A stretch of 64,000 nt of DNA from Odontocerum albicorne (taxonomy: Eukaryota > Arthropoda > Insecta > Trichoptera > Odontoceridae), in the NCBI GenBank assembly GCA_949825065.1, contig OX463845.1:22280516-22344515 (forward strand). Direction: 5' to 3'. Shown one piece after another: positions 19,793-42,545 of this stretch (position 1 is the first letter of the stretch; every line of letters begins with the position of its first letter). The position numbers and the translations under genes were made by a program. A model generated the notes under the pieces. It was not told where the DNA came from. It saw only the letters and a program-made list of their open reading frames with translations, and did no database searches.

Positions 19793-20010
19793 TGAACGTG
19801 TTATTATCACCATATCAGAAGATCTACAAAGGTTTCTTTGTAGTTCGTCTTCCCTTGGGAGGTTTTTTTGCGGTTTTCTTACTAAATATGTTATTCTGAA
19901 CATACTCGTATGTATGCAGATGCGAGGGAATACCTTATCTGATGGTCGCAGCCACTGCCTTATTATTATATTCATATCCTTACAATTGACTTTATATCCT
20001 CGTATATTTA
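19793..20010 (+). mobile_element. LINE-D 3' UTR fragment
   Basis: Plus-strand landmarks ACAAAGGTTTCTTTGTAG, TGCGGTTTTCTTACTAAATA, CAGCCACTGCCTTA and CATATCCTTACAATTGA follow the order seen on the minus strand at 47755-47500. It carries TACTCGTA at 19903-19910 where related copies have no such sequence. Confidence 0.6.
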
Positions 20011-20035
20011 TTATGTAATATTTTTAATGACAATA

Positions 20036-20690
20036 ATAGCGGGTCCGAGTCGCGAGCTAAATGCGAGCGTATGAGTTTGTGAAAATCAAATTTGGTCAAC
20101 ACTCGAATGTCAAACTGCGAAATGCGATATTTTTTTCATAGCAGCGGTAGTACAAACTATTTCAACTTATACAATGTGAACGTGATTTGGGGAAATAACA
20201 TGTTGTTTGAATAAGCTGTAACACAAAATCGATTGTAAACCGAGCTTTATTTGCACCGACTTCTTTGTCGGCGTTCTCAAGTCATACACAAACTAAATCG
20301 AATTGGAGACCCACAACTCCAGTTCATAAAGACAAGTCAGTTGAAAGGCTGCCAAAATGCTAGACGAATAACATCATGAATGCAGCGGGATCCAGACGGG
20401 TACCCACCATTGGAGAGCCATGGGGATACATACATCCAGTTGTGTATGAAAAGTGACAGCAGAAAAGAGTACGAAACTCTTAAAGTGAAAATATCTAAGT
20501 ATACGCATCTTTATGAAAGGCAGTCGAGGGAAAAATTGAACTCAAACTAGTGAAGTGGAGAAATTTCGCCATTTTGAATCGAATTTCGGTGAATCTGCCA
20601 AGGATCTGATGTCTATATCGGCGAGCAGGTGCCACTGAGATAATAAGATTACACTCCAATTGGATAAGACGCCCCCCCCGCCAAGCTGAG
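20036..20690. other. No gene seen
   Basis: Moderate GC, no recognised ORF. A GCCCCCCCCG run sits at 20671-20680, just before the hairpin below. Confidence 0.45.
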
Positions 20691-20699
20691 CGTCGACTA

Positions 20700-20757
20700 C
20701 CGAGAGAGAGATTACCGGACCAGTGGCGAAACTAACCGACGGTAATCTCTCGCTCGG
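20700..20757. repeat. Strong inverted repeat (hairpin)
   Basis: Arms 20700-20716 and 20741-20757, 17 bp each with one mismatch (CCGAGAGAGAGATTACC against its complement), separated by a 24-base loop. No neighbouring gene explains it as a terminator or processing site. Confidence 0.7.
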
Positions 20758-20934
20758 TTTACTGAATTGCTATGTATCTTTAACGTCGATTAGATACAGG
20801 GGTTTATTGCACGGCGTTTTTCAATCATGTTGAAAAATAGTTATTCTTTGACTAATTAAATTTCTGTTACGAAACATATCTGCGAAATGTTTCAGAAAAG
20901 GGTATTTTGTGCATTTGAGAATTTTGTGCATTGT

Positions 20935-21130
20935 CGACTTAGAGAAAGCGCATGATCATGTATGAGAGGAATTGTGGGACGTATACTTATTGAGTTTTTT
21001 GAAATTACTAAAGGGTTAAACAAGGGTATGTAATGTCAACTTGGTTGTTTAATTTATATATAAATTTGTGTTTCCACTATTTAAAACATGATAGGAGAGG
21101 TGTAAGAATTGTATTACAGATTTCTGCAGC
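20935..21130 (+). pseudogene. RT fragment, LINE-A-like
   Basis: Translation with frame jumps gives VDLEKAHDHV, matching the FVDLEKAYDRV box of RTE-like reverse transcriptases. A GLNKGM..CQLGCL string follows that corresponds to the KGVRQGCVMSPWLFN region. Confidence 0.5.
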
Positions 21131-21589
21131 CCCTTTATTGCAGAGTATAGATTTAATCCATGACTCTATCTCCCATTTTTTATGGATTTGCTTGGATGTT
21201 AAACGTTAGATGAGATCTACTTACCTGTTTTTTTTAAATACTCGTATACGTCAAATGCTAACAGGAAAAAAAACTTACCCCTTGTTGATTTGTTCAATGT
21301 ACTGGACAATTATTTACGCTATCATGAATTACGATTGTTTTCGGTGCAATATTCACGAACTGAGCTGACTGAAATAATGACTTCTGACACCGTTGTCTTC
21401 CATATTACTGTGGATAAATTAAGGAAAGAACCTCTTAATAAACATTGTAAGCATAACTAAGTATCTTCATAAGAGTGTTATTGCTTAAACGCATGAGTGT
21501 AATTGACCCTGTTGTCATTATGTTGAATTTAGTATTTTATTTTATTTTTCTTATTATTTGTTGTAAAATGGTTAACCCTTATCAAATAA
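21131..21589. other. No gene seen
   Basis: Contains TACTCGTA at 21239-21246. No coding signature recognised. Confidence 0.4.
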
Positions 21590-21690
21590 TAAGTAAATTA
21601 ACAAAAAATATGAGAAAATTATGGATAGACCAAGCTAATGAAATTTTAAAAAAATATGAAAAGTCAGATAAACCAAAGGAGATTTATTAA
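21590..21690 (+). mobile_element. Possible LINE-A C-terminal scrap
   Basis: KLWIDQANEILKKYEK (end of the ORF at 21475-21690) resembles AKIWLNQVNDILKEVKN at the LINE-A C-terminus near 33740-33780. Short and weak. Confidence 0.3.
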
Positions 21691-21699
21691 TTAAGAGGG

Positions 21700-22125
21700 G
21701 ACGTAAAATAAACATCGCAATATAAAAATATGCAGCTCGGCGCTCTCTACCTATTACAATAATAAAAATAGCGGTAGAACTCGTATATATTAATTTTTGG
21801 ATTTTTTAAATATCTTTATTTAAATACCTCTCGTCCAAGATTTGTTTAAAATTTGATTAATCAAGAAATTTTTATCACATATTATAAAAAGATTATTTAC
21901 AATTTCAACAATTATTTGATTAACTTATCAAGTATGTAATACATTTGCTCCGAACACTCGAATACGTCCGGTTTTTTAATAAATCATTAACAGCGATAAT
22001 ATCAATACCAAATCAAAACAAATAAACATAATTGCGATGGGTTACACCTATAAACGTCACAATTCGAAGAATACAATATAACCTGTACGAATCGTTCGAT
22101 ATGTTTCAACTGCAATTTTTTTTCA
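21700..22125. other. No gene seen
   Basis: AT-rich spacer before LINE-A. No recognised features. Confidence 0.45.
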
Positions 22126-22129
22126 ATAA

Positions 22130-23155
22130 GATAGTCGAGTGAACTCTATGGGGAAAAATGATAGGTGAGAGGAAAGGCTGAAAAGAAAGTGTGCAATCAA
22201 TACTTAGAGTGCCTTCTTAAGTGAAGGAAGATGCGTTGGTCAGATTTTACCTCCTCGTATGGTTGTAGAAAAATATATGGCAAAAAATAAGAAACTTGAC
22301 AGTGCATTTGTGGACTTGGAAAAAGCATATTACCGAGTGATAAAAGATGAGATATGGAAAATATTGAAAGAATATGGTTTTGAATGTAAATTAATACATA
22401 GCATTGCGTCATTATGTGCTGAAATAAGAGCATTTATTAGTGTTAATGGTACATTGGCTGAATAGTTTAATTTTTCGAAAGAGATAAAACAAGGATGTGT
22501 TATGTCACCCTAGTTGTTCAATATTTATATAGATTCGTGGGTGAACGAACTACAGATGTAAATGGGTGGCATTCAAATGGGAATATGCGAGGATTGATAT
22601 ATGCTGATGACATGGTAGTGTTAGCGAAGAATGAGGATAAATTGTATGAGGGATACGAAGAGAAAGATCTGAGAATTAATGTTGCGAAATCTAAAGTCAT
22701 GGTGAATGAAAAGTGTGCCAAGGAAAGTAAACATGATATATGGATAAACAATTAAAGATTACAGCAAGTTGAATAATTTTGCATTTAAAGTACTAGTATT
22801 TTGCAATATAGATAGTACTTTAAGACTTACGAAGAATATCGAACGGGGTGTAGCGATAACAAACAAAGTTAATAAGCCATGACAGAATACGGAACGAAGT
22901 GATTAGGAATGAATGTAAATTTAAAGCTGATGTGTTGAGTAAGATGAAGAAGAGCACTGTGACATGATTTGGGCACGTGAAATGAAGAAATGAAGATATT
23001 CTAACCAAACAAATATACAGTGAAAATGTGAGTAGAAGGCGTGATAGTGGAAGTCCGATGAAAGTACGGTTTGATCGAATGAACGACATTGTAAAAGAGG
23101 TTTAAAAAAATCGTAGGAGCTTTATAAGAAGGTGTATGGGTGTGGAAGAGGGATA
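22130..23155 (+). mobile_element. LINE-A, RT and C-terminal part, decayed
   Basis: RTE-like non-LTR retrotransposon. ORF pieces give MAKNKKLDSAFVDLEKAYYRV (22259-22465; the usual Asp of EKAYDRV is Tyr), IKQGCVMSP at ~22483 and LIYADDMVVLAKNEDKL (22590-22640, the YADD active-site box). A C-terminal stretch beginning near 22875 matches the other copies. Several frameshifts and stops (for example after GTLAE) make it inactive. The 5' part and endonuclease are missing. Confidence 0.8.
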
Positions 23156-23159
23156 TTTT

Positions 23160-24239
23160 TTTCTTTTTATCCTCGAATTATAATTGTTCAAAGTCTTTAC
23201 TTTATTTGACCGTTTTTCTACCTATAAACGAAAATTTTATAATAATGGTGAATATTTATTGTTTCAATGATATTTTGGAATATACCATGTTGCTACTAAT
23301 TGTATTTTAAGTTCAAATTTGAAATAAAAAATTGACTCGTCTTTAAATCGAATGAAGAAAACGAAAAATATGACTTTATGTACAAAAAGTATTATATAAA
23401 AAAAAGGTATTGTAACCCATATCCATTTCTGGAAAAAAGCTAAATTAAGATTTTGAAAAACATTGTACAATACAGAAAAATAGTAATCGTACTTACTGCA
23501 TTTTTAAATTTAGGAATAAGGTTCTTATATTCTGCAAAAAGTTAATCATATTATCGATTTCAAGTTTTGAAGTATCCTCGACACCGATTGGATGACAAAA
23601 TAAACTTCTTATTAAAAATGCAAAATGTTTTCAACATGCAGCATTAATGTTGAAAAAAATAATGATGTTTCTATGGATTATTTTATCATAATAACATAGA
23701 TAAAAAATCTTTTTGGTGAAATATTTTCACCCCAACCATACGTAGAAATTACTCGCATTTCATTTAAAATACGAATCAGTGTCTTAAATAGGATATTTTC
23801 GGTTCTCAATTACAAGAAAGACACAACAGAATTCGAAAAGTATCTTGAACACTGGTATGAAGCGAGATGGAATTTCCAAACTATTTATTCCAATCCTATT
23901 GCACCCACCCAGGCATGTCTAAGAGAACACCTCCACGCCTGATTCTCATTCATCAAAGTCAGTATATATACATCATTACAATTCTAATTACTTAATATTA
24001 TTTGTTTTCAAGTGGGTGTCATGAGGTCTTGAACAAACGGATTGAGTAATCAAGCAATAAATCATGAGCTGGTTGAGAGCGATGTGTATTGTATTAAGAT
24101 GATTCAAAGAGTCAATACAGGTATTCAAATTGAAGTGCGTCGCTAATTACTAATTTATTGTATTTTTATATGAATCAAAAATTTAAACATGTACTTTTAT
24201 AACGTTTAATTCTGTGAAATCTGGAAAAGCTGTAAATTG
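23160..24239. other. No gene seen
   Basis: Searched on the minus strand for a further TRIT1 exon without success. No repeat family recognised. Confidence 0.4.
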
Positions 24240-24345
24240 AGGATGCTTTATCAATCTTTAGACTATTTGAGATAGATGTCTGTCCTCTCTGCCTCTCCCA
24301 AAAGGACATGATGAGATGGGATGTATATGTGTGTATAATGGATAG
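24240..24345 (+). mobile_element. LINE-A tail fragment
   Basis: GTCCTCTCTGCCTCTCCC then GGACATGATGAGATGGGATG, the LINE-A tail pattern. It lies downstream of the second TRIT1 exon, on the opposite strand. Confidence 0.5.
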
Positions 24346-24873
24346 TAAAATAAATAGAATTCGTGCTCTAAACTATAGCAAGAAAAAAATCATTAAAAAA
24401 ATATACTACATCGAAAGACCTGGGGAAAAGGCTTTACCATTCTGTCAAGAAGGTTCTGTATGGTCTCTTTCTCCGAAACCCCATCGGATCAAGATGAATC
24501 CATAAAAAGTTGGATGTTATGGAGATTTGTGGTCTCACCATGAGTGCAACCAACTGCAGGAAGAATGCTGCTGATAGTTGCAATAATGTAAGTATGCACG
24601 AGGGTCGAAATGCTAATGATGATAATGTACACCAGAGACATTTAAGTTCAAAACTTGTTTTGCACAAAAGTGCACATAATTTGCTATTCGTGGTTTAAAT
24701 TCATGTTTAAGAATTCTCTCTGCGATTCTTCATTAATATAACTTCTAAGACAAATAAATCCAAGTTTTCAGATAGGGCATTCTGTGGTGCTGGATCTGTT
24801 CTGTAAAAAAGTCCGCTTGCGGAGCTACGCGCTAAGTAACAACATCAGAATAATAAATAACATTGGATCAACA
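24346..24873. other. TRIT1 intron, no further exon recognised
   Basis: Follows the splice donor at 24874-24878. The ORFs here do not continue the TRIT1 protein: the expected SLQVFEETG-like segment is not seen. Confidence 0.45.
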
Positions 24874-24878
24874 CTTAC

Positions 24879-25291
24879 CTTAAGATTTTCCTTCTATTAT
24901 TGGGATGTAGTTTCTCTGCCATTTCCGGGTCCACCTCTTTCAATTTTGCATATATGTATTCATTGCTGTGTGGAGATTCGTTACTGAAGTCATCTATTTC
25001 ATTCACAGTCGATGTTTTGTCTCTTGCACAAGCACTTTTTGTTTTCAAGTCGCTTGCATCACTGACGCCTTGGTTATCTTGCTTAGATGTAGAACTTATT
25101 TCAGATGAGGCATGTGATTCCAGCTTTAACTTCTTGATATCCCGCTTCTCTTGATCACGTTCCGACACAAGTTTTGTTTCCCCTGAAGTATTCAATTCTT
25201 CGACGAGAATCTTCCAAAGAATAGACTCGATATAGTAATTTGTTCCTCCAACTACAATTGGAATCTTATTTTGTGATAGCATCTCATCAAT
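24879..25291 (-). CDS. TRIT1: tRNA dimethylallyltransferase (TRIT1/MiaA family), internal exon
   Basis: TRIT1 adds an isopentenyl group from dimethylallyl diphosphate to A37 of tRNAs reading UNN codons (i6A37), in cytosol, nucleus and mitochondria. This exon encodes IDEMLSQNKIPIVVGGTNYYIES, the family's conserved VVGGTNYY block, and ends with EVDPEMAEKLHPNNRRKILR, matching human VDPEMAAKLHPHDKRKVAR. Between them lies a low-complexity Ser/Lys/Asp-rich stretch (about 80 residues) longer than the human counterpart. The donor is a perfect GTAAGT just after ..ATCTTAAG. The acceptor is taken as AG at 25292-25293 because that gives the right spacing and phase 0 with the upstream exon. The P-loop exon and C-terminal half are not found here. 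Confidence 0.92.
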
Positions 25292-25376
25292 CTGATCTCA
25301 AGTTAAGGAATATTTTGAGAATAAAATTCTACTCGTATTAGAATACGTTATATTGTTCTGATTTCCATTTTCTTAC

Positions 25377-25830
25377 ATGGAGCGGAGACTTTCTTACCTG
25401 AACACTGAGAGCAAAAATGAGATAAAAGGTGGATGCATTCTAAATGTGGTGCTGCAAATGGATGCTGAGGATATCTTGGTCGCGCGTCGCACCAATGTAT
25501 CGATTCAACTTGGGATTCAGGACAGGCTGCCCACGATTTGTCTGCAACGAATACTCCAATTCTTTGACCATGTTGCACGCGGAGGAATGGAGAATTTGGA
25601 AAAAATCATGTTAACGGACAGTGTGGAAAGAAAACGAGGCAAAGGTAGATTATCAACCTGATGAACTCATCAAGTTATGATGCAACAGGGTACTTCATGA
25701 TGAAGCACTCCAAAAGGCTCAAAGTAGGGAGAGGTGGAGAATCGTCGTGGGCAGAGTTGGGAAGACGGACCGGAAAGATCACGACCTTCAGTAATGGGGG
25801 ATCAGGACTAACAAAAGACGATCGCTTCGT
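25377..25830 (+). mobile_element. LINE-R-like 3' end, antisense in TRIT1 intron
   Basis: ORF 25377-25661 reads ARRTNVSIQLGIQDRL then LQRILQFFDHVARGGMENLEKIM and ERKRGKGR, matching the C-terminal GHIARR..NLEKL..GKRxRGR region of RTE-type LINEs. A continuing remnant ends near VMGDQD at 25793. It lies in the intron, opposite to TRIT1 transcription. Confidence 0.75.
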
Positions 25831-25984
25831 ATAACCTTAAGTACGTTATTTCGAAAACTTTATTTTATTTTAATGAATATTTCCACGTAAAAATTATAAC
25901 CATTGTAATATATACAAAATATGGATGTTTAAAAAGGGCGAGAGACATTTTTTAACGGCAAAATTAGAATGTGTATGGATCACT

Positions 25985-26420
25985 GCTACATCAGCTTAAC
26001 TCAATGGAATGGAGGCGTGGATACTGAACCAGGACATATTACGTAGGATCGAGACTTTTGAGATGTGGATCTACAAACACTTCCCCAAAATTATCTAGAT
26101 AGATCGCGTTACAAATATGTAAGTACTTGCTCGTATGAATAAAAGCCTAGAACTGCTTAAAATTGCGGTTTGCAAGTTGCTTTATCACGGTGACAAAATG
26201 AAAGGCACAAGATGCATTATAACACAATTTATCATCGAGGGGGAAATAAACGGTATTTGAGGCAGATATAGATGCCTAATCTTTTAGCTTAAGAACTTGC
26301 TGGAATGGTTTGCATGCAGTACAACTGAGTTGTTCCAGGCTGCAGTGAACAAGATAAAGATTGCCATGATGATGGTTAACCTCGAATAAGAGACGGCACC
26401 TCGAGAAGAAGGCAAAATTG
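25985..26420 (+). mobile_element. LINE 3' end, second antisense copy in TRIT1 intron
   Basis: Broken translation gives RIETFEMWIYKHFPKI, IDRVTNM, LKNLLEWFACSTTELFQAAVNKIKIAMM and ETAPREE. This is the C-terminal pattern (AFEMWIYRRxLKISWxDRVTN..LFRAAVNKxxIAMMIANLR) of insect endonuclease/RT retrotransposons. It is a different family from LINE-R. Confidence 0.65.
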
Positions 26421-26580
26421 TCTATCGATATTGGGTTAATATAAATATGACAATTTTCGGCCTAAGTATAAATTTCTTTTTTAGAGCAAATAAAAATAAT
26501 AAAGTATTTCTTTTTTCCAGTAAAATTATCTAAAAATACTTCGACATAGGACATTTATATATTTTAAAAGGAAATTAGAG

Positions 26581-26611
26581 TACCAAATGTATTTAACAAA
26601 TACATTTGGTA
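26581..26611. repeat. Perfect short hairpin in TRIT1 intron
   Basis: TACCAAATGTATTT at 26581-26594 and its exact complement at 26598-26611 with a 3-base loop (AAC). Confidence 0.75.
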
Positions 26612-26755
26612 TTTTAATTTCATTTAATGTTCATAAAATAATAACACATCGCCAAAATATAGGTTCGCAAAGTTTTATTACAAATATATGTAATTATAAT
26701 AAATTCAACCTGAATCGTGGGCATTCTTATAATCCTGTAAATTAGGTGGTAAAAA

Positions 26756-26853
26756 TAGTCGGGCTTTGCGAGATATGTAGCCTGTGTCGAGCCTCGAACT
26801 AGCTTCTATTTGCAGTTAAGTCCAGCATGTTAACCGTAAAACCCAGCTCCAAT
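26756..26853 (-). repeat. SINE-B-like head, diverged
   Basis: On the minus strand ACGGTTAACATGCTGGACTT and AGTTCGAGGCTC align with the SINE-B A- and B-box regions (CGGTAACGCACTGGACTT, AGTTCAAATCCC). The body is not recognised. A true tRNA gene is unlikely because the acceptor arms do not pair convincingly. Confidence 0.4.
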
Positions 26854-26983
26854 ATTTTTTTAGAATGCTTCTAACTAATGCTACACATCTATTTTCAAGA
26901 AGAAAAAAAAATACATATTAACAGCATACAACGTTCAGGTTCGGTCCTTCGCAAGACATGGTAAGACAGATCATAGAGGATAC

Positions 26984-27121: not shown

Positions 27122-27124
27122 CTG

Positions 27125-28554
27125 AAACAAAATGGATAAATTAATTCATAAGCTTCTTCGAACCATATGGAATGTCAAACTATTACTATGATCACGTGTC
27201 ATTTTAATTATTCAAAACAAGGAAGCGTTTTGTCCTTATTATTTTGCGTGTTTGACAATCCCAACCCTCATTCAGATCTTCGTGAAAAACTCAATTTCTT
27301 TCTGAGCATGGACTATTCCTCCAATCTGGTGACGACAAGATTCTTTATAAATCATTGTAACCACACATAATTCTAACATCTGCATTCGCAATACACTCGG
27401 TGCGACTTCCTTAATCGCAATCAAGAGAGAATTGAAAAAAATATTGCATTACACAGTATTCACATTCATTCTTATTTGCCTTATATTTGAACGAATTATT
27501 TTCCTGTATTTCCTACCTTGACTGTTCCGAGATAAGATTTTTTATTTGAATTTTAGTAAATATTTTCAAATGTTTACTATGAATTCGGCCCTTCGTAGTA
27601 ATTTCCGATTTAGAAACAAACCTCAGAAATTAGCCCAAAGGGTGGGCCCTTGCCCTGGGCATTTCTGCTTCTGAACGAAAGTTCAGCATTGCACATAGAG
27701 AATAATTGTTGTAAACTGATTTCATAGTTTGTTAAAAATATTAAAACGATTTATTTGTATTCTTTATGTACACATCCAATATTTATTTATTGAGTTAGGT
27801 CGTTTACCTTTATGATGTTTATATTTTTTTTGATAAGTACGAGTAATGAGATAAGCTGCATTAATAAAACGGGAATTTCTAGTTAGTTAACAAGCACGTA
27901 AAAATAACTAGATAAAATAAAGAAGTGAAAGAAGAAGGAATATCATTTGATTCAAATATGTTATTTAAAGTGCTATTTATATTAATTATCGTTCAACTAA
28001 TATTTTTCTCTCTATTGATAATATTGTTGAAATCTTAAAGATACATACACCCATTAGTATAATCAATTACATTGGTAATTTAAAAACTACCTTCAATTGA
28101 CGTTTACTTCCTATTCTTCCGGAAGCATGTTTATTTGGTTTGTTGACCCTTTTTATTTAACATTCTATTTTAATTTATATGTACTCTTATTTTTCGGAAA
28201 ACAAAGCGCATTGCGTGTCATGTAAAGGGGAAACATTGGAAATAATTGTAACTAAGGTATGAATTAAACAACTCCCCTCAATGTCCTACATATCGAGGCA
28301 CCATTGTCCTTAAATTTCTTTCTGGGGAAAATAATAATTGACTTTTTCTATATATGTCAATTCGTACCACTCTTTCTGATATTTATGAATACACCTCGAG
28401 CCAACGTTCTAGAAAGGGGTAAAGACCCTTTTTATTATTTTGAAGACGATAGTTAAAATAGGGTGTTTTGCCTTGAAAAGAACTTAAACAAAATTACAAT
28501 TATTGTTGAGACCTTGGGCACTATTTGAAATTAAAAATATGATATACTATACAT
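27125..28554. other. Probable TRIT1 upstream intron, no exon recognised
   Basis: No P-loop (GxTGTGKS) coding sequence was seen on the minus strand. TACGAGTA at 27838-27845. No repeat family recognised. Confidence 0.4.
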
Positions 28555-29100: not shown

Positions 29101-29406
29101 CAGATTGGAAGGAACGTATAAGACCTACTTTAATATACAGGAATGAAATAGTGCTTTTTCATGACACCCGTCAACCCAAAAACAGTTCAAGAATTTCTGA
29201 AGCAGGTTCTAAGCGCCAGAATAACAATACAAACCCGATGAAAAATATCCTTGTTCTCCTATAATTAAATAAAATTTCATAATTTAGAACTAAGTGAGGC
29301 TTATAGATTATATTTTATAAGTTTCCGACACATTGAAAAATATAATTCCTCAATTACAATAACTTGAAAGAATATTTTTAACTGGACTATTGAAATTGTA
29401 TATAAT

Positions 29407-29880
29407 AAGAACAATTCACCCAACGTAGTATATATTCTATAGTTTATATCTAATTCAATTAGTCTGAATCCAGAATTGCATTGAATAAGAACAATTCACC
29501 CAACGTAGTATATATTCTATAGTTTATATCTAATTCAATTAGTCTGAATCCAGAATTGCATTGAATAAGAACAATTCACCCAACGTAGTATATATTCTAT
29601 AGTTTATATCTAATTCAATTAGTCTGAATCCAGAATTGCATTGAATAAGAACAATTCACCCAACGTAGTATATATTCTATAGTTTATATCTAATTCAATT
29701 AGTCTGAATCCAGAATTGTATTGAATAAGAACAATTCACCCAACGTAGTATATATTCTATAGTTTATATCTAATTCAATTAGTCTAAATCCAGAATTGTA
29801 TTGAATAAGAACAATTCACCCAACGTAGTATATATTCTATAGTTTATATCTAATTCAATTAGTCTGAATCCATAATTGAG
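29407..29880. repeat. Tandem repeat, 80-bp period, about 6 units
   Basis: AAGAACAATTCACCCAACG recurs at 29407, 29487, 29567, 29647, 29727 and 29807, exactly 80 bases apart, with only a few substitutions between units. No ORF spans it. The near-identity points to recent expansion. Confidence 0.97.
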
Positions 29881-30111
29881 TTGAAAAAATAAGTTAAAAA
29901 CCAAAGTTTTACCCCGCTTACTACTTCAACTATTACCAGCTGATGTCCATCCCATGCATGGTTCAAGTCATGCAACTCCTTAGTCGACTATCGGTTGATC
30001 CTACACATCTAATTCGAGCCAGACACTCACAAACAATCTCGTACCTGTGTCTCATGGCCAAACTACCAAAACTCCTGGGCTCTGTTCGTGGTCTGCATTG
30101 TAGTACCTTGA

Positions 30112-30335
30112 TAACCTCCATGGAATAGTTGGTATGACGCCAATCTACCAATACATACGAGTAGGTGGCAGACTCGATTACCGTTGGTACGCATTTTTTT
30201 TAAAAAAGGTTTCATACTAGTTTTCCACTTAAGGCCTCTCTTATTTTTTTCTGTTAGGTTAGAAGAGATTGTCATATCAAAACAAATCCGCTAGGATGTA
30301 CAGTATACAACGAAAGTGCAGTACAATACAATATT
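30112..30335 (+). repeat. SINE-A with internal 6-bp insertion
   Basis: Head remnant ACCTCCATGGAATAGTTGGT, B-box-like ACTCGATTACC, AAAAAAGG body start, tail TAGAAGAGATTGTCATATCA and terminus AGTACAATACAAT. TACGAGTA at 30156-30163 lengthens the head by about 6 bases relative to the copy at 10869. Confidence 0.65.
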
Positions 30336-31009
30336 TCGTTATAATACAGTGCAGACACATACTTCATTTAAACGTATACAATGACTTTGATAAAATCTTT
30401 GAAATGTTTACTCGCCAAATAAGTATGCATGAATGTGTTAAAAAAACAATACAGTAGTTGTTATTAGATACTTTTAAAAGCCACTTATTCAACTCAAAGA
30501 AACTTGATGACTTCCTAAAATATATACATACAAACCCATTTAAACTAATATTACTCAAAAATTATACTTTTTTCGTTCCATTACCATTGCTTCACAGCTT
30601 GAATACTAATATACTGTTAATTTTTCGTTATCAAGATTTTACAATATTGAGGTACTTATGCTGTACTTATATTTTGCTTCAAGAATCATCACTTAAGATC
30701 GGTCGCAGATTAATAATTGAAGTCAAGCAACTATTTACTACCTTAAGTAAGCCAAACAGGTAACGTTGAAAATGACATAAATTTACAATGTTATGACAGC
30801 AAGGCAATAATAAATGCCGCATCTTAAATCTTAACATTTCTTACTTGATGCAATTTAGATACTCGTATATACGCGGAAAGCTTAGCTAACTAGTGTATGC
30901 ATTAACGTATTCCGAAATGAATTGCGTTTCTCAGAAAAAGCAGCGTTTGTCAAACAATATGATGCCATGTCAAAAAAATACCGAACAATTTAAACAAAAA
31001 AATCAAATA
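30336..31009. other. No gene assigned
   Basis: A 101-codon ORF at 30458-30763 has no recognisable domain. TACTCGTA at 30860-30867. Confidence 0.4.
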
Positions 31010-32664: not shown

Positions 32665-33905
32665 CTGTACAGAATTTTTTTTACAAAAAGAGTGAGTAGA
32701 AAGACTGAAAAGAAAATGTGGATGCTCAGGGTGCCCTTCTAAGTGGGAGTGTGTGAATCAAATTTTCTCTTAGCGTATGGTTGTGGATAAATATATGGCA
32801 AAAAATAAGAAACTGTATGGTGCATTTGTGGAGAAAAAAACATATGACCGCACGATAAGAGGCAAGATATGAAAAATATTAAATAATTATGGTGTTGAAT
32901 GAGATTGATACATGGTATTGCGTTATTGTATGCCGAAATTAGAGTATGTATAAGAGTGGATGGTACCTTGATTGACAAGTTTAATATTTCTAAAAGGGTT
33001 AAGTAAGGATGTATCATAGCATCATGATTGTTTAATACAATATTTACAGATATTATTGTGTGAAGGAACTGCAGAGGTCAATGAACGGCATACAATGCTG
33101 AATGGGAATGTGTGCGGTTTATTGTATGATATGCTGATGACATGGTAGTATAAGCGGAAAATAAGGATGAATTATAGAGTCTGATAAGTAAATTATAAAG
33201 AGAAAAAAATGAGAATGACTATTACGAAATCTCAAATCATGGTGATAGAAAAGTGTGAAAGGAAAAGTATATGCGATATATGGGTGAGAAATGAAAGATT
33301 AGAGCAAGTTGAAGAATTATGCTATTTAGGTAGTATTTTCTTAGATGATGGAAGAGTAATGAGGGCCATCAAACAGAGAATAGCGATAGGAAAGAAAATC
33401 AATGGGATATTAAAATATATAAAGTCGAACCGAACAGTGTCAAAATGATGATAGTCCATAACAGTATTGTAGTACTAGTTTGATGTACGGGAGTTAAACG
33501 GTGAAGTGGAAAAGGCTTAAAAGACCTGAATAAATTATCTAGAAGAATACATGGTGTGACAGAATACGGAAATAAGGGATTAGGGGTGAATGTGAACGTA
33601 AGTTTGATGTGTTGAGTAAGATGAAGAAGAGTACTCTGGACGTGGAACAAATGAACGAAAAAAGACTAACAAAACAAATATACTCGTACATTGCAAATGT
33701 GAGTAAAAAGCGTGATAGTGGAAGTCCGGCGAAAATATGGTTGAATCAAGTGAATGACATTTTGAAAGAAGTAAAAAATCATAGGAACTGTATGTGAAGT
33801 TGTATGGATGTGGAAGAGGCGAAATATGTGTGTCGCGATAGAACGCGATCTCCTTTATGTCTACACCAACAGGGAAACGGCGTAATGATATGTATAATAT
33901 ATACA
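32665..33905 (+). mobile_element. LINE-A, 3' continuation after LINE-CR insertion
   Basis: Resumes at AGAAAGACTGAAAAGAAAATG (matching 22170-22195) and includes MVVDKYMAKNKKLYGAFVEKKTYDRT. Then come an ADD remnant near 33130, KVEELCYLGSIFLDDGR in the ORF at 33209-33448, and KIWLNQVNDILKE. The 3' end is the tail ATGTCTACACCAACAGGG..GGCGTAATGATATG. TACTCGTA at 33681-33688 is an insertion relative to 22999 and 12200. Confidence 0.8.
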
Positions 33906-34602: not shown

Positions 34603-34764
34603 TTCATCAAGTTCAATCTTGCGATTTGCAAAAAAAAATTCAAGTAAATAGTACTCATAAGTTTAACACGACAAACGGGTTTCTTAGATAAAACTAAAAA
34701 AAATATTTCAAGAGAAATTTCATCAATTAGAAAGACAGGTGATTTTAAAAAAAAGGAAGAATGC

Positions 34765-34830
34765 ACAGTACACACATACATACGTCATCTTGCTTTCGGG
34801 GTAGGCAGAGACGACTCATCGCCAGACTTT
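34765..34830 (-). mobile_element. LINE-A tail fragment
   Basis: CATACATACGTCATC then GGGGTAGGCAGAGACGA, the inverted LINE-A tail. Confidence 0.45.
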
Positions 34831-35685
34831 CCGATTTCGACAAAGATCCGTAGTCTCCACCACTTATATACAAGTTCTACGAATGCACGGTATTACCGTC
34901 AAAAATACGTCAGAATATCGAAGATAAATTTTATATTCTGTTAGCCGTTGTTTTGAACATGCCCTAAGGCAAGCAACACTAGCTTAAGGACTCGTATTAC
35001 TCGTTGTAGAGACTAACGGCATACAAAATACAAGGACAAAAGTAAAAGCGGTGAACTTGAAAACCTAAGGATAAATATTGCTTGAACTCAGCGAGACAAT
35101 GAGAATTTTCGGCGAGATATGAAAGGGTATCGAAACAGTTAGGGATATTGCCCAAAAATTACGGTGAATTCATTAAGTATGGTGAGTGAAAATTATTTAA
35201 AAAAACGTATATTATGTTCAATTAGCATTACGAGTATAACATAAAACATGCTTAAATAGTCGCATCAAAGAGTATTTAAATATGTCTAAATCATATGATT
35301 TCAAAATAATTTAAAAGAACTTGACTAAGCTTTGATGACGCTAACTGTATAACTTACGTTTAAAAAAAACAAATAATGCAATTAATCACTATTTTCAAAT
35401 ACAAAACAAGTTGATAGAAAAATAAACATTCATACTTTGTTTCATATACGTTTCCCACTTCAGAGAGTGTGTCTGTAAATATTTAACAATAAACCACTCC
35501 GTCGGGCCGCATCGTGGCCTTCGTGAGGTCTCAGCTTGTTTCAGTTATTTCAGGAAGCTCAATGAGCAAACAGTGAGACTGGTAATGCTAGGTTTATCAG
35601 TATTATAACGGTTTTATTGTAATTTCGAATGAGAAACAATTTAGTAATTTAATTGTTTCATATGATTTTAACACATAAAAACATA
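34831..35685. other. No gene seen
   Basis: TACGAGTA at 35229-35236. No recognised coding sequence or repeat. Confidence 0.45.
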
Positions 35686-36039
35686 CATATTATCACGCTG
35701 TGTCCCTTGCAGGGTAGGCAGATAGACTAGATCTCCATTTTTTGTATTCAAGCAAACAACTTTCGCTTCCTCCACATTCATACCTTCTATTATTCATAAT
35801 TCTTTATTTACCTTCTTTCAAAATCTGGTCTACTTGATCCAGTCACATTTTTCCATGTGCACTTTGCACTTGTAATAAGAATTCTCGCGTAGTCAATCTT
35901 TCCGCATTCACTTTCTCCACGTGTACAAACCGTCTTAAAGTTCCATTTTTTCATATTGCTCAAAACATACATTTTATCCATCTGACGTCTTCGTTCCATT
36001 TTCTTTATAAAATTGATACACCACCTCCAAACGTTATTC
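35686..36039 (-). mobile_element. LINE-A 3' end
   Basis: The plus strand shows CACGCTGTGTCCCTTGCAGG and GTAGGCAGATAGAC, the inverted tail. Minus-strand coding remnants include RRRQMDKMYVLSNMKKWNFK, corresponding to the ADVLSKMKKSTV-type region of LINE-A. Confidence 0.55.
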
Positions 36040-37830
36040 ATCGCATCATCAATGCTGAGCGTCGTGATCCTCTGGTATATCTCGATCTCGGTGGTGCACG
36101 AACTGTCTCCATAATTCTCGGTTTTGGGAAAATGTTGAATACAGCGCTTAAAGAGGATCCTGTTAACTCTTTTATTTGATCCGTCCGTCTCATAGAACGC
36201 CTTTCTCTTGCTCGCTTTCCTTCAACTGTTTTCGCGAATTTTCTTCAACTGTTTCACCAGCTTCTCCAAACTTTTATAATGCTTTCTAGCAACATACCCA
36301 ATGTACGTTAGGATTATTTTTCTGCATATCAAGTCATTCGGTAATTTCCAATTCTCGGATGAGAGAAACTTTGGCATGCAGAGGGATGGCGTAAGGGGCA
36401 TTTACCTCCAGCCCCATATTTCGAAGGCACCTGTCATGTTTATTTCCTTCCTTCTCATCGTCCATGTTTCCCCTCCATGCAGTGCTATGGAGAATACTAG
36501 AAGCTTAACTAGACGAATTTTGGTTCTTCTGAGTATAGATCGGTTAGTCCATATCTTTGTCAGACTTCTCATACATGATTTCCCTATTCCAGTTAGTCTT
36601 CAGATCTCTGTTCCGCATCCTCAATTTCACGAAATAGGAACCTAGGAAGATAAACTCATTATCTTTTTCGTAATCCCTTAGCGAGTCAGATCTCGAGTCT
36701 CGAATTGGTCCACGTTAAGAACTTTGTTTTACCGTTGTTTATTTTTAGTCCTAGTTGGCGGCTTTCTATATCAACTCTATGAAGGAGGTCAGCCATCTCA
36801 TATTCGTCGTTGGTTACAGCGTTCTATAGTCTGCGAATCTTATATTGGATATTTTACGACCGCCTATGACAAAACCACCTGCCCACCCGCCTATTTTTCT
36901 CTGCGGCCTGGGATTTCTAGTATCAGAAATATGGATGGTATGTGCAACTTTAGGAAGCACTTAAAGACAATCCTTTTCGGAAGGTCTTATCAAAATTAAT
37001 GAGTGGGTTCGAATCCTGAGTTGGAGCGCCCTTGAGGAGAGTTTGCTTTCTAAGCGGTGGTACATAAATTATCATTTTATTATTATTATTATAATGTACT
37101 CTCCATATATGTGTATGTTGAATAAATCAAAGAATAGTATGCAGCCTTCACGTACTCTTTTCTACATCTGGAACAGTTCTGAGAGGAACTCGTCTAGTTA
37201 TTATCGCCTTTATCAACATTTCATCGTATGTTCAAAATTTGTTCCCGTGTGCCTCTGTCTTTTACAAACTCAGCTTGTGCTATTAGTATTGACAGTCTAG
37301 ATAATATTTTAATTTTCTTTCTATTATATGTAGGACTATTTTGCTGGTAGGAGAGATAAGTGAGACAATTCTACAGTTTTCACATTTTTGCGTCGATCCC
37401 TTCTTGTGTATAAATAAACACATTCTCTACCCAGTATTTTTGCCGTTCTCCGGTTCTCCAAATTGAGTTGCATATGTCAATCATCTTTTTAATGCCATCA
37501 CAAGTCATATTTTTGAGAAACCTAGCTTGGATTTCATATTTTCCGGATGTCTTGAAAGTTTTTAGCTTCGTCATGGCGATTTCGACTACTTGTAGGATTA
37601 TGGCAGGTAAGATTCTCTAAGGTAGATTCTATGTATTTTTCCTGGACTTGCACACTGTTATCTTTGTACACTTGTGCGTAATATTATTTTCATATTTTGA
37701 TGAGCATGTAAATTTCGTTGGTTTCCCTGGTTGTCTTCAATATTCCACGTTTGAGGTTCGAACTTTTGTAGAGTAAATTAACTTTAAGTCTTTCTTAACG
37801 TTAAAACATGTTTGTCTCGAGTATGATTGG
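36040..37830 (-). mobile_element. LINE-R (RTE-like), RT and C-terminus, interrupted
   Basis: Minus-strand order: TSGKYEIQARFLKNMTCDG and CNSIWRTGERQKYWVE (ORF 37380-37574, RT fingers), REGCILFFDLFN (~37160), then an insertion. It resumes with IRFADYRTL, the decayed FADD box, at ~36840, then ESRQLGLKINNGKTK, FIFLGSYF and a C-terminal remnant, ending GATGATG near 36040. The organisation is RTE-like with many stops. Endonuclease not seen. Confidence 0.75.
36850..37097 (+). mobile_element. LINE-D 3' end inserted in LINE-R
   Basis: ORF tail CNFRKHLKTILFGRSYQN ends at 36999, matching FKKHLKTAVFERTYQN of the LINE-D copy at 47.7 kb. It is followed directly by the LINE-D 3' terminus CCTTGAGGAGAGTTTGC (37029-37045) and a TTATTATTATTATTATAAT tail. 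The antisense LINE-R reading frame is interrupted at both edges. Confidence 0.7.
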
Positions 37831-38292
37831 TGGGTCATGGCTCTCGATCTCCTCTCAAACTGCGCTTCCGTTACAATAAAGATCTCGCAAATATTGTTTA
37901 CTATTTGTAGGACTATAGAAACGTATTCGAGGCTTACATGTTATAAGACAATGTCAGTTTATTTGCATATTTTATGCGATGATACTACGTATGACCAATC
38001 GAGTTAACCAGGCAGTTCATACTCGGATACCTAACAGATCTGAGGGCACCACGCCTTGCCTTCTAGGGGGCACGATTGCTCTATTAATTTCTAAATTATA
38101 CTCAATCATTAAATTATTTCTGTAAAATGAGGTAAATATTATATGTTGTACAGAAAATAGTTTCATATTTCTGAGATATTTGTTAGGACCAAATATTCGT
38201 TGTAAACATCATTCCAAACAAGCTGTATCTATATTATTATTATGAAAAGTAATAGTTTAGCACATTTTTTGGACAATGTTTACCAAAATTAA
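37831..38292. other. No gene seen
   Basis: Spacer between LINE-R and LINE-F with no recognised coding sequence. Confidence 0.4.
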
Positions 38293-38522
38293 TTGAGAAA
38301 ATTTTTTGAGCTAATTAATAGCGTTGTTGAGCTAATTAAAAGCGTTGGCCGGAATAAGCTGACCACCAACTTTCGTCTGTTGTTTAGGGCACCCTCTTGT
38401 CCTGGAGAAGTAAATAATCTCCAAAGGTGGAAGAACTTTAGTGGTCAACGGTATAGGATGTGGAAAGAAACGGGAAACTACCACATTAAAGGCCCAAGTG
38501 GCATCCCAAGAACCAGCAAAAC

Positions 38523-40256
38523 ATGATTCAATCTCAAGTAAAATTCTCCGGAGGTAAAATAGTCCCCCGTTCGGATCTCCGGGTGGGGACTGCTCGAGAT
38601 GGTGGATTCACAAAATCAACGATGAAACCAAAGAAACCAAATAAAAAAAACCAAATAGCGAGATGGGCAACGTGGAATGTCCGCACATTACTGCAAAACA
38701 GCAAACTGGATAATCTGAAAGTCGAAATGCAAAACAAAAATTTGAATGCTCTAGGTATAGCAGAGATGAGATGGCCCGATTGTGGAGATTTCTGGAGTGG
38801 TGACTACAGAATCATACACACAGGATGCATAAAGGACAGACCTGGTCAAGGAGGAGTGGGCGTTGTGCTATGCAAGGAGTGGGGAAGAAGGGTTAAAGGA
38901 TACGTGCAATATAGTGGAAGAATTGTTCTAGTCAAAATAGAAACTAAGCCCGTTGACACTGTAATTATCCAAGTATATATGCCAACATCGGGTCATAGCG
39001 ACGAAGAGGTGGAAGATGTATACAGTGCGCTAGATAACATTATATTAGAGATAAATGCAGGCGAAAATCTGATTCTCCTAGGGGATTGGAATGCTGTTGT
39101 AGGAGTAGGAAGTGAAAGAACTTGCGTAGGGCCCTTTGGGCTAGGTACAAGAAATGATAGAGGAAACAGATTAACAGAATTCTGCGAAAAACACAAATTA
39201 GTGATAGCAAACACTTGTTTTCAACACCACCCAAGACAGCGATACACCTGGAAATCCCCTGGAGACCGACAAAGACTGCAAATAGATTATATAATAGTTA
39301 GACATAGATTTAAGAACCAAATAAAAGACTGCAGAAGTTATTCCGGCCCAGATATAGATAGTGATCATAATATGGTAATGGCCAAAAGTCTTCTAAAACT
39401 GAAAAAATTAAAGATGCGAAATAATTTCAAATGGGATACAAAGGTATTAAAGATAAAAGAGGTCAGTGACAATTTTAGGGAAAAGACACAAGAGTGTAAC
39501 CTAATGGAAGAGGATAACGTGAATGCTATGTGGGGAGAGATAAAGTCGAAGATAAAAACTACGGCAGAGGAAATTATAGGTAAGGAAAGACCCCAAGCAA
39601 GGAAGGAATGGATTACCGATGAAATTCTCAATATGATAAAAGAAAGAAGAGAGCTCAAAAATGATAAAAGAGATGAATCACAAGAGAAATACAAAATGCT
39701 AAGAAACAAAATAAATAGAGAGTCAAGAATAGCAAAAGAAACATACTATCAGAATAAATGCGTTGAGATAAATGACGACCTCAAGAGAGGAAATGTAGAA
39801 AGAGCTCACGCTGCGGTGAAGGACTTCTTTGGGATGAGAATCGGAAAGAGCAATGCAATAGAAGGAGAAGACGGCAAAATACTATTCGAAAATGACCAAA
39901 TAAGAGAGAGATGGAAAAGATATCTCGAAATGCTGTACAATGGCAAGGGAAATATTGACAGTGAAGCATTGATAGAGAGAGAAAATGAGGTAGACGCGGA
40001 TGATCTGGGAGACCCAATCATTAGAGAAGAGTTCGACCTCGCACTGAAAAACCTCAAAAACGGGAAAGCACCCGGAATCGATGACGTTCCGGCCGAACTA
40101 ATTAAGGCAGCAGGAAAAGGAATCACAGATGCCCTGTTTAAAATGATACAGACAATATATAAGACCGGAAAGATACCAGAGGACTTCGAGAAATGCCTAA
40201 GTGTCACATTACCAAAGAAGGCAGGTACGACAAAATGTGAGCAACACAGAACTTAG
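38523..40256 (+). pseudogene. LINE-F ORF, endonuclease and RT N-terminal half
   Basis: 577 codons. The APE-type endonuclease (nicks the target to prime reverse transcription) shows WATWNVRTL (~48), GIAEMRW (~79), VYMPTSGHSDEEVEDVY (~150), LLGDWNAVVG (~185), IDYIIVRHRF (~255) and SDHNMVMAK (~281). A basic linker follows, then RT fingers LKNLKNGKAPGIDDVPAEL and GKIPEDFEKCLSVTLPKK. The frame is lost at CEQHRT, where one base appears to be missing just before 40256; the protein continues in the frame of 40201-41517. Confidence 0.88.
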
Positions 40257-41517
40257 CCTAATATCCCATGCCTCAAAAATACTGACTAATATCATTCTAA
40301 AGAGAATTGAACCAAAAGTAGAGAACATCCTTTCCAGAGACCAGCATGGCTTCAGAAGAGGTGTGGGAACCAGAGAAGCAGTACTGTCTCTACGAATACT
40401 ACTAGAAAATAGAATAAGAAGAAACCAAAACACATACATCGCATTCATAGACCTGGAGAAAGCTTTTGACAAAGTAGAATGGAAAAGACTCTTCGAGATT
40501 TTGAAGAGAATTGATATCAAATACAGAGATAGACGTATAATCCAGGCGCTATACAAGAATGAGGCCGCTATAATCAGATGTGACGAGGACACAAAGGAAG
40601 CCAATATAAGACAAGGGGTAAGGCAGGGATGCTCTCTGTCACCTGTTCTTTTTAACGCCTATATACAGAGCGCGATTGACGACTTGAGAGAAAGAATGAG
40701 TCACAGAGAAGGTGTAAAGATACACGGGCAAAAGGTGGATATGATAAGGTTCGCTGACGATATTGCTATGGTTGCTGAAAGTGAAGAGGAACTACAAGAG
40801 GCCTTAACAACTATGGAAAGCATTCTTCAAAATAACTACAGTATGAAGATAAATAAAGACAAAACAAAGCTGCTGACTGTAGGCCGAGCGCAGCACCAGA
40901 TGAGAATAGTGATGTCGGGTAAACCACTAAAGAACACCAAGGAGTTTGTCTAACTCGGGAGCAAAATAACATGGGACGGTCGGTCCAAGAGCGAGGTCGA
41001 CAGCCGTATACATCAGGTTAGACTTGCATTTAATAAAAGGTCGAAAATAATAGAATCAAATAATATAGACCTAAAACTGAGAATACTCCTCATCAAGACC
41101 TATGTATGGAGTATCTTGATGTACGGCTGCGAGACATGGTGCCTATCCGAAAGAGATAGACGAAGACTAGAGGCTTTTGAGATGTGGTCCTATAGAAGAC
41201 TATTAGGAATTTCCTGGAGAGACCGCATCACAAATGAAGAGGTTCTCCAACGAGTCGAAGGAGGAAGGCACCTGCTCAGGATCCTGTCTGAAAGGCGTGC
41301 AAGATGGATCGGTCATATAATACGACAAGAGGGGCTCTTGCATGCCATAATGGAGGGTATGACCGAGGGGACAAACTCTAGGGGACGCCCACGCCGAGAG
41401 TACCTGGAGGACCTGTTGGTGGACGTGCGCTGCTCAACATATATAGATTTAAAAAGAGCCGCACAGGACAGGGGGGAATGGAGGAGAAGAGTTGAAATTG
41501 CTGCAAACCAGTCTTAG
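40201..41517 (+). pseudogene. LINE-F ORF, RT palm to C-terminus, one in-frame stop
   Basis: Continuation of the RT: LSLISHASKILTNIIL, AFIDLEKAFDKVEW (first catalytic Asp), GVRQGCSLSPVLFN, IRFADDIAMVAES (FADD box) and MKINKDKTK. A TAA at 40951-40953 interrupts the FVYLGS-type motif (FV*LGSKIT). After it the frame runs on with ILMYGCETW, FEMWSYRRLLGISW, RRARWIGHIIRQ and a C-terminal RRVEIAANQS. Apart from the frameshift and this stop the gene looks intact. Confidence 0.88.
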
Positions 41518-41564
41518 GACTGCAACCACGGAGAGAGAGAATTAATAAAAGCTCTTAAGGTGAT

Positions 41565-42545
41565 TAGGAAACAGCACTTCACAAAATTATCAATAAAAAC
41601 ATGTTTTTTTGGTACATGAAGTTTTTTACTACCGCCAAGAAAAATATGAGACACAAACCAAAAAGAATAATATGTACAGTGTATAGTGACGATAACAATC
41701 GTGTGTGTCAAATCTAATTTAAAAAATCCGTAATAGTAACACGATACTCGAAGGTTGTGTCCGCTCTGGAAAGCTAATTATCACCAAAAACGGCCAAAAC
41801 AAAGCTTTAATAAAAAATAACAAACAATCTGCGACTCAGAAGCTTGCTGAGGTGCAGAAAATATTGAAAAACAACCGTCATCGAGCCTTTTGTGAAGCTG
41901 GTTGCGTGAATTGTTACGATGTTTGGGAACCGTATGGTTTGAGCGAAAAAAATATAGTATATATATCGGGTCTTCGTCAGCTATTGACTGCAAAAACGCA
42001 ACGAAAACGAACAATTTTTGAAACGAATAGCAACGGGAAATGAAAAGTGGGTCGTCTAATAATGTTGAGCCAGGGAGGTCGTGGAGCAAACAAAGTGAAC
42101 CACCATGAAGGCTCGTCTTTATCCGAAAAAGGTAATGCTGTATCGTCAGGATTCGAAAGGAATCATCTACTACGAGTTAGTACCAACCAACCAGACGAAC
42201 GATTCGGAGAAATACTGCTTGCAATTGGACCAATTGAAGGTAGCAATTGATCTAAAGGGTTAAAAATTAGCCAATATGAAGGGCGTCATATTTCACCAGG
42301 ACAACGCTAGCCTCATGTACTCGTATATTTGCAACCTAAAAAAATGGTAAAACTAGACTAGGATATCCGACACCATCCGCCGTAGTCGCCACTTATTTCG
42401 ATCCCTACAGAATTTTCTTAAGGGGAAGAATCTCACTTTCACGGAGGCCCGCAAAAGTTATCTGATAACGACCAAGTCAAAGCTTTAATCGATACTAACC
42501 AGCGTTCTACAACACCAGAGATTGTGGAGGTAATAAAAGTATCGT
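41565..42545 (+). pseudogene. Mariner transposase, heavily decayed
   Basis: N-terminal remnant near 41634-41710 (YFRKGKN-like, then a NRVCQIWFKK counterpart). Then come FLKRIATGNEKWVV (42015-42050; the expected catalytic Asp of GDEKW reads Asn), IIYYELVPTNQ, YCLQLDQLKVAID, GVIFHQDNA (42275-42310; second Asp kept) and an HHPP-SP remnant at ~42370. Many stops and frameshifts. It belongs to a mariner group different from the two at the left end. TACTCGTA at 42318-42325 adds two codons relative to the family pattern. Confidence 0.8.

What the first reader, a model, noticed from the sequence alone, without database searches (positions are those of the whole stretch)
19897..42325. The octamer behaves as a 6-bp insertion at TA: candidate excision footprint TA-CTCG-TA
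In four element copies with relatives in this window or a coding frame to compare, the octamer looks inserted. LINE-A at 33681 has it where 22999 and 12200 read directly AAATATAC-AGTG / AAATATCC-AGTG. LINE-D at 19903 has it where 47.57 kb reads AACATATGAAAATGCAG. SINE-A at 30156 is ~6 bases longer than the 10.9 kb copy there. The 41.6 kb mariner at 42318 gains exactly two codons between HV and YLQ. A TA target becoming TA-CTCG-TA or TA-CGAG-TA, in both orientations, is how Tc1/mariner-superfamily excision scars look (TA, a few terminal bases, TA). No element starting CTCG or CGAG next to TA was seen here. If genome-wide, it would record a huge number of excisions of an unseen element, or an unknown insertion process.
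Basis: partly seen in the sequence, partly recalled or inferred. Interest (0 to 1): 0.88.

Follow-up and report, generated by a model that had tools for sequence, protein, structure and literature searches.

The report
Genome-wide scars of a jumping mariner
The eight-letter word TACTCGTA, seen about 380,000 times in this animal genome, looks like the scar left when a cut-and-paste mariner transposon ending in CGAG jumps out of a TA site, so it may be a countable record of several hundred thousand transposon departures.

Summary
The octamer TACTCGTA/TACGAGTA is real and hugely over-represented: 33 in the window against 1.6 expected; 190,749 + 190,753 genome-wide against 15,070 + 15,081 for the reversed word. 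It behaves as a 6-bp insertion at TA: of 8 octamer sites with an aligned relative, 4 best relatives lack exactly six bases and none matches in length; of 444 control TA-NNNN-TA sites, 8 lack six and 283 match. Decayed variants are not in excess, so the insertions are young. Its target flanks resemble one side of the scars and its exact-ended copies are about 2% diverged. Best reading: excision footprints from a 4-nt CGAG overhang, about 350,000 in one genome. Against it: published mariner cuts are 2-3 nt inside; scar flanks are asymmetric; both randomly sampled copies have a changed left end. Not shown: one locus both filled and scarred, or an intact transposase.

The parts
1363..1370 (+). octamer TACTCGTA
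1417..1424 (+). octamer TACTCGTA
2746..2753 (-). octamer TACTCGTA
2973..2980 (-). octamer TACTCGTA
4496..4503 (-). octamer TACTCGTA
6344..6351 (-). octamer TACTCGTA
9240..9247 (+). octamer TACTCGTA
9413..9420 (-). octamer TACTCGTA
10013..10020 (+). octamer TACTCGTA
13498..13505 (+). octamer TACTCGTA
16375..16382 (+). octamer TACTCGTA
16881..16888 (-). octamer TACTCGTA
19631..19638 (-). octamer TACTCGTA
19903..19910 (+). octamer in LINE-D; four relatives lack ten bases here (by eye six plus a TATG duplication)
21239..21246 (+). octamer TACTCGTA
25330..25337 (+). octamer TACTCGTA
27838..27845 (-). octamer TACTCGTA
30156..30163 (-). octamer in SINE-A; alignment to the 10.9 kb copy is not clean
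30860..30867 (+). octamer TACTCGTA
33681..33688 (+). octamer in LINE-A; the best relative lacks exactly six bases
35229..35236 (-). octamer TACTCGTA
42318..42325 (+). octamer in a decayed mariner coding relic; two-codon gain not verifiable
45500..45507 (-). octamer TACTCGTA
45887..45894 (-). octamer TACTCGTA
48048..48055 (+). octamer TACTCGTA
48991..48998 (+). octamer TACTCGTA
49904..49911 (+). octamer TACTCGTA
49985..49992 (-). octamer TACTCGTA
50860..50867 (-). octamer TACTCGTA
55686..55693 (-). octamer TACTCGTA
60065..60072 (-). octamer TACTCGTA
62872..62879 (+). octamer TACTCGTA
63194..63201 (+). octamer TACTCGTA
57701..57996 (+). unscarred copy of a LINE fragment; its relative L003:1065 carries the octamer where this one reads TA

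Best explanation
The octamer is the repaired excision site of a mariner transposon. A mariner with inverted repeats beginning 5'-CGAGG inserted at a TA, duplicating it (shown for fetched copies, TA-CGAGGCG...GCCTCG-TA). Its transposase later cut it out, cutting the transposon's 5' strands four bases inside each end, so each flank kept a 3' overhang CGAG (inferred from the scar). The two CGAG overhangs pair through their outer C:G and G:C with two G.A mismatches in between (inferred; that such tandem G.A pairs are stable is recalled) and are ligated. Replication or one-tract mismatch repair then gives TA-CGAG-TA or TA-CTCG-TA: one word in two orientations, without mixed words (TACTAGTA and TACGCGTA are not enriched: shown). 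About 350,000 such scars have accumulated recently (mean divergence at most about 3%).
For: 6-bp insertion at TA in relatives, with 2,200 control sites of which 444 had relatives. Exact word only: 24 one-mismatch neighbours 132 seen, 129 expected, 137 seen, 141-156 expected; TACTAGTA 6 vs 6.8, TACGCGTA 2 vs 2.5; no excess for the 3-nt word TATCGTA (23 vs 33) or for TACGTA (47 vs 48). Source family present: 10,377 exact ends TACGAGGCNTATCCAGAAAGTAA, control 0; a looser pattern gives 10,528, and 10 of the first 100 listed belong to a sister family CGAGGGTC. Seven copies fetched because both ends matched exactly are flanked by TA on both sides. Flanks: element ends have A/G at -1 in 88 of 100 and A at -3 in 69; the TACTCGTA side of the scars has A/G in 71 of 78 and A at -3 in 46 (p = 0.13 for a difference at -1). 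Age: seven elements 1.6-3.0% from majority; scars -0.7% (95% -4.5 to 3.3%). Transposase: PF01359 4.3e-19, HTH_48 3.2e-07, nearest solved relative Mos1 2e-33, DD34D spacing counted by eye. Minos leaves a 6-bp footprint (PMC10992017, passage).
Against: Published mariner and Sleeping Beauty nicks lie three bases inside (PMC4505599, PMC7827188, passages), Tc1/mariner 'two to three' (PMC2170065, passages). Scars outnumber elements roughly 10- to 70-fold. The flank on the other side of the scar (left of TACGAGTA) has C/T at -1 in 29 of 93 against 10 of 93 (p = 0.001) and differs from element flanks (p = 0.004); a symmetric heteroduplex does not explain this. The two copies met at random (L009, L016) have left ends CTAG and CTAT, not CGAG; their excision would predict other scars, which are not enriched. 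Only 14 of the first 100 listed exact ends have an exact partner, so much of the family is more decayed than the exact-ended copies whose age I measured. No intact transposase was seen among the copies read (L009, L016, L031). No locus was seen both filled and scarred.
Confidence: 0.74

Rival explanations
1. The scars were left by another CGAG-ended Tc1-like element (Minos-like, 4-nt scar) that is now rare or lost, and the abundant mariner is a bystander sharing the CGAG terminus.
For: Minos is known for a 6-bp footprint and its inverted repeat begins CGAG (recalled). Mariners usually leave 3 nt. One flank side of the scars differs from mariner flanks. Both randomly met mariner copies have a changed left end.
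Against: The Minos terminus TACGAGCCCCAAC occurs 7 times genome-wide, control 2. Of the eight best Minos-like transposase loci fetched none shows CGAG ends: L024, L025, L026, L028 and L030 have inverted repeats beginning TACACTAGCGG or TACACTGGCGG, L023 shares the inner part of that repeat (its very ends were not printed), L027 begins TAGTCTG, and L029 gave none. In the fetched loci an ungapped scan for TA-CGAG inverted ends found the two mariners and one stretch inside a longer inverted repeat of L022.
Confidence: 0.14
2. A non-excision process inserts CTCGTA/TACTCG directly at TA (an ultrashort insertion, for instance templated or oligonucleotide capture), without any element ever being there.
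For: Scars far outnumber elements; flank asymmetry suggests an oriented event; no filled/scarred pair seen.
Against: The inserted bases are exactly the terminal tetranucleotide of a very abundant TA-targeting mariner, with similar target flanks on one side and a compatible age.
Confidence: 0.07
3. The word is a selected functional motif, an ancestral part of repeats, or an assembly artefact.
For: It is dispersed and shows no excess of one-step variants.
Against: It lies in decayed repeats of several kinds and in coding relics, absent from their relatives; flanks in the window look unrelated by eye; ATA-R-TA flanks typical of a transposon target would not be expected of an artefact.
Confidence: 0.04

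Closest known systems
Minos (Drosophila hydei, Tc1-like) excision footprint
   Same: TA target; 6-bp scar (PMC10992017, passage). That Minos ends in CGAG and that its scar reads TACGAGTA/TACTCGTA is recalled, not seen in a call.
   Different: Minos termini are essentially absent here (7 hits, control 2); the candidate here is a DD34D mariner; I know Minos scars from experiments, not as hundreds of thousands in one genome (recalled).
Mos1 and other mariners (DD34D)
   Same: Transposase family (PF01359, HTH_48, Mos1 best in PDB), TA duplication, about 1.27 kb for the longest copy, imperfect inverted repeats.
   Different: Mos1 leaves a 3-base overhang (PMC4505599, passages); here the scar keeps four bases.
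Hsmar2-type mariners with CGAGGG termini
   Same: Hsmar2 inverted repeats contain CGAGGG (PMC3770610, a supplementary figure legend); a sister family here begins CGAGGGTC.
   Different: The reconstructed Hsmar2 transposase gave non-canonical, variable footprints (PMC3770610, passages).
DNA transposon excision sites in rice
   Same: Genome comparison of excision sites of DNA transposons, Mariner included (PMC4423477, passages).
   Different: There only 8 of 94 excisions were 'perfect' (only the target duplication left); the rest had deletions, filler or both. Here one exact 6-bp scar dominates.

Membership tests
Tc1/mariner-type excision footprint | Extra bases sit at a TA that is single in unscarred relatives and double in the scar | tested here: met
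   (5 of 10 loci exactly; 2 with ten bases; 3 otherwise)
Tc1/mariner-type excision footprint | Inserted bases equal the terminal bases of a TA-flanked element in the same genome | tested here: met
   both ends in 7 copies chosen for exact ends; but L009 and L016 have changed left ends
Tc1/mariner-type excision footprint | Both orientations occur, without preference | tested here: inconclusive
   38 and 40 of 78 on the two strands; relative to the target there is a flank bias
Tc1/mariner-type excision footprint | Same site seen filled in another allele or species | not testable with these tools
   no second genome or reads
mariner (DD34D) as the source element | DD34D transposase with Mos1-type helix-turn-helix | tested here: met
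   L016 ORFs: PF01359 4.3e-19, HTH_48 3.2e-07, Mos1 2e-33; 34 residues between the second and third D counted by eye
mariner (DD34D) as the source element | Scar of three bases | tested here: not met
   3-base word TATCGTA 23 seen, 33 expected; the 4-base word is the one enriched
mariner (DD34D) as the source element | Intact transposase present | tested here: inconclusive
   L031 has an in-frame stop; the genome search for other copies did not complete
Minos | Inverted repeat CGAGCCCCAAC next to TA | tested here: not met
   7 exact hits in 1.29 Gb, control 2; the terminus is recalled

The most novel reading that the evidence does not exclude
One lineage of mariner with self-pairing CGAG overhangs has been cleared from roughly 350,000 TA sites almost without error, either by a very rapid germline wave or by programmed excision in the body whose tissue was sequenced, so that scars outnumber surviving elements by tens to one.
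Probability: 0.13. Interest if true: 0.95.

Novelty: new variant of a known kind. Interest (0 to 1): 0.74.

Why it matters
Excision scars are known from experiments and from comparative sets such as 94 events in rice (PMC4423477). A genome in which about 350,000 identical 6-bp scars can be counted would be a direct ledger of cut-and-paste events, letting excision rate, target choice and end-joining fidelity be measured genome-wide. The scars would amount to about 2 Mb of added sequence, and six bases keep a reading frame. The case points to a mariner with a four-base stagger and very clean repair.

Tried and rejected
Minos itself as source: terminus practically absent. Tc1-like loci nearest Minos: no CGAG ends among the eight fetched. 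An 836-bp TA-CTCG inverted repeat in L019 proved to be a patchwork of repeat fragments shared with many other loci, not an element; a TACGAG match in L022 lies inside a longer inverted repeat. Mixed-repair words TACTAGTA/TACGCGTA and 3-nt scars: not enriched. Rfam on the window: 0 matches at gathering threshold. Literature: the octamer strings occur in 0 papers of the held open-licence library (whole words); phrases for 4- or 6-bp footprints gave 7 papers, none on a genome-scale mariner scar by title and start of abstract (listing only); 'excision footprints' with mariner gave 62 papers, 15 listed. A search for the stable tandem G.A pairing of CGAG found nothing, so that point is recalled. A paper on Minos tools that I wanted is not held. 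L016 and L032 (9.7 and 6.6% from majority) were left out of the 1.6-3.0% range: L016 has a different deletion that the alignment misplaced (blastn gives 96-97% between L009 and L016) and L032 has an extra 241 alignment columns. An earlier count said 8 of 9 copies share one deletion; the right count is 7 of 9. From the enrichment and flank counts I left out L001-L008 (chromosome end, overlapping loci) and, the first 470 bases of L021 (satellite); searches kept some chromosome-end loci (L003, L004; one search also L008, whose self-overlap with L004 gave 18 spurious rows with the octamer on both sides, not used). A mismatch-tolerant search for the mariner ends and genome-wide counts of TACTCGTAA were tried many times and never answered.
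Full report
Observation. TACTCGTA (with its complement TACGAGTA) occurs 33 times in the window, 1.58 expected, none of 100 shuffles reaching 33. The window lies in a 1.287-Gb genome of 1,241 contigs, where the word occurs 190,749 + 190,753 times; read backwards it occurs 15,070 + 15,081 times. The excess is about 351,000, one per 3.7 kb (one octamer of any origin per 3.4 kb). In 234 kb (window plus L009-L030) there are 78 copies against 4.8-5.8 expected; among TA-NNNN-TA words it stands at z = 30, the next at 6.6. With three more 10-kb loci the count is 93 in 263.9 kb. Flanks of the window copies look unrelated to each other by eye.

Insertion. Of 91 octamers in the sequence used for, 8 had an alignable relative spanning the site. 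In none of the 8 did the best relative have the same length there; four lacked exactly six bases, one lacked ten, three showed other differences (for one of these, L022:1864, four of seven relatives lack six). Of 2,200 control TA-NNNN-TA sites, 444 had a relative: 283 with no net difference, 8 lacking exactly six. Of 15 octamers in three further loci two had relatives: one lacks six, one ten. The cleanest pairs are L021:6470 (93% identity), L015:1846 (88%) and L003:1065 (84%); the last, read by eye, lies in a reverse transcriptase relic next to its ADD motif. Of the four cases in the finding, 33681 is clean, 19903 lacks ten bases in its relatives, 30156 is not clean, and 42318 cannot be read as a gain of two codons, because related mariners have about six residues where this copy has two.

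Age. All 24 one-mismatch neighbours together are at background (132 seen, 129 expected; 137 seen, 141-156 expected by model); the implied mean divergence of the scars is -0.7% (95% interval -4.5 to 3.3%). The eight transition neighbours alone are up (69 against 51-56), so some decay is possible. A steady ancient process would have left about as many one-step decayed copies as exact ones (my inference); that is not seen.

The element. In the loci fetched by place, two copies of a mariner (L009:7732-8687, L016:1904-2866) have right ends that read TACGAGGCATATCCAGAAAGTAAG; their left ends read TACTAGGCG and TACTATGCG. Genome-wide the terminus TACGAGGCNTATCCAGAAAGTAA occurs 5,174 + 5,203 times, reversed control 0; a looser pattern with flanks gives 5,233 + 5,295. 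Of the first 100 places listed (all on one contig, C1), 43 are CGAGGCG, 42 CGAGGCA and 15 others, 10 of these CGAGGGTC. Seven copies chosen because both ends match exactly read TA-CGAGGCG...GCCTCG-TA; the longest (L031) is 1,271 bp between the TAs. Compared with L009 and L016, seven of the nine copies (L009, L032-L037) share one internal deletion, so most of this small set belong to a non-autonomous subfamily; L016 has another deletion. Seven of the nine lie 1.6-3.0% from the majority; L032 and L016 are higher because of alignment trouble; L009 and L016 are 96-97% identical. Copies with exact ends are a young-biased choice. None of the nine contains an octamer. The coding relic in L016 matches Transposase_1 (PF01359, 4.3e-19) and the Mos1 helix-turn-helix (HTH_48), with Mos1 the nearest solved protein (2e-33) and DD34D spacing by eye. 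L031 carries an in-frame stop, so an intact source copy was not seen.

Linking the two. The inserted four bases are exactly the terminal CGAG of this family. At the base before TA, element ends have A 59, G 29, C 8, T 4 of 100; scars read on the TACTCGTA side have A 56, G 15, C 2, T 5 of 78 (p = 0.13); position -3 is mainly A in both; background TA sites have A 0.37, T 0.33 before TA. Tc1-like copies of this genome also have a purine there in 8 of 10 ends read by eye, so the match supports a TA-targeting transposon of this superfamily more than this family alone.

Mechanism. A four-base 3' overhang CGAG on each flank pairs with its twin through C:G and G:C with two G.A mismatches between. That such tandem G.A pairs are stable is recalled; a literature search did not find it. 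Replication of the joined heteroduplex yields CGAG on one strand and CTCG on the other, which explains one word in both orientations and the lack of mixed words TACTAGTA and TACGCGTA. A three-base overhang predicts TACGATA/TATCGTA or TACGTA, which are not in excess. Steps shown: insertion at TA, identity with the element terminus, similar targets on one side, compatible age. Steps inferred: four-base cut, annealing, resolution.

What does not fit. The flank left of TACGAGTA has a pyrimidine at -1 in 29 of 93 scars, the other flank in 10 of 93 (p = 0.001; 26 against 7 discordant sites), whereas the two element ends have alike flanks (p = 0.83). Some step must tie the orientation of the scar to the asymmetry of the target. 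Both copies met at random have left ends CTAG or CTAT; the scars that such ends would add are not enriched, so excising copies must have had CGAG at both ends or the right-end bases must prevail. Scars outnumber elements: in 234 kb of window and loci fetched by place there are two copies of this mariner and 89 octamers (74, 15), which suggests some 11,000 elements; exact ends alone suggest about 5,000; and the share of exact ends with an exact partner (7 pairs among the 100 ends listed) would allow up to about 37,000 if the two ends decay independently. That is about 10 to 70 scars per element, which needs repeated jumps per lineage or loss of most elements. At 2% divergence and an assumed insect mutation rate (recalled, about 3e-9 per site and generation) this is well under one new scar per genome per generation, so no exotic rate is needed.

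Comparison. Sleeping Beauty and mariner nick three bases inside (PMC7827188, PMC4505599, passages), Tc1/mariner generally two to three (PMC2170065, passages). Minos leaves six extra bases (PMC10992017, passage); that its scar is TACGAGTA/TACTCGTA is recalled. In rice 8 of 94 excisions were clean (PMC4423477, passages). The octamer itself is in no paper of the held library.

Species. Unnamed. Fourteen of the 20 contigs first asked for are 44-64 Mb long, which suggests about 30 chromosomes in all; the first hit with an organism name for a Tc1 protein of this genome is the caddisfly Arctopsyche grandis (57% over 79%), and for the mariner relic the aphids Cinara cedri and Uroleucon formosanum (74% and 82%). 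An insect, perhaps a caddisfly, is a guess.

Noticed in passing
G000:C1:1-150,000 (L001-L008): Octamers are about four times denser at this chromosome end than genome-wide (the first 100 plus-strand hits fall within 150 kb), partly at regular 66- and 99-bp spacing, and L003/L004 also hold near-variants around ACTCGT.
   Followed up: no
fetched loci and window, 93 octamers: Target flanks are asymmetric relative to the orientation of the octamer (pyrimidine at -1 in 29 of 93 against 10 of 93); unexplained.
   Followed up: partly
G000:C1, e.g. 246572-246602: A second mariner family with termini CGAGGGTC (10 of the first 100 ends listed) shares the CGAG end and could contribute scars.
   Followed up: no
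G000:C43:6570395-6656570: Cluster of Tc1-like transposase matches, several without stops; not fetched. Five fetched relatives on other contigs have inverted repeats beginning TACACTAGCGG or TACACTGGCGG.
   Followed up: no
window 29404-29885 and 52638-52987: Tandem arrays: 80-bp unit x 6 (98% matches) and 71-bp unit x 4.9 (97%).
   Followed up: no
window 58150-58864: Long, nearly perfect inverted repeat beginning TATACAGGAGACGG.
   Followed up: no
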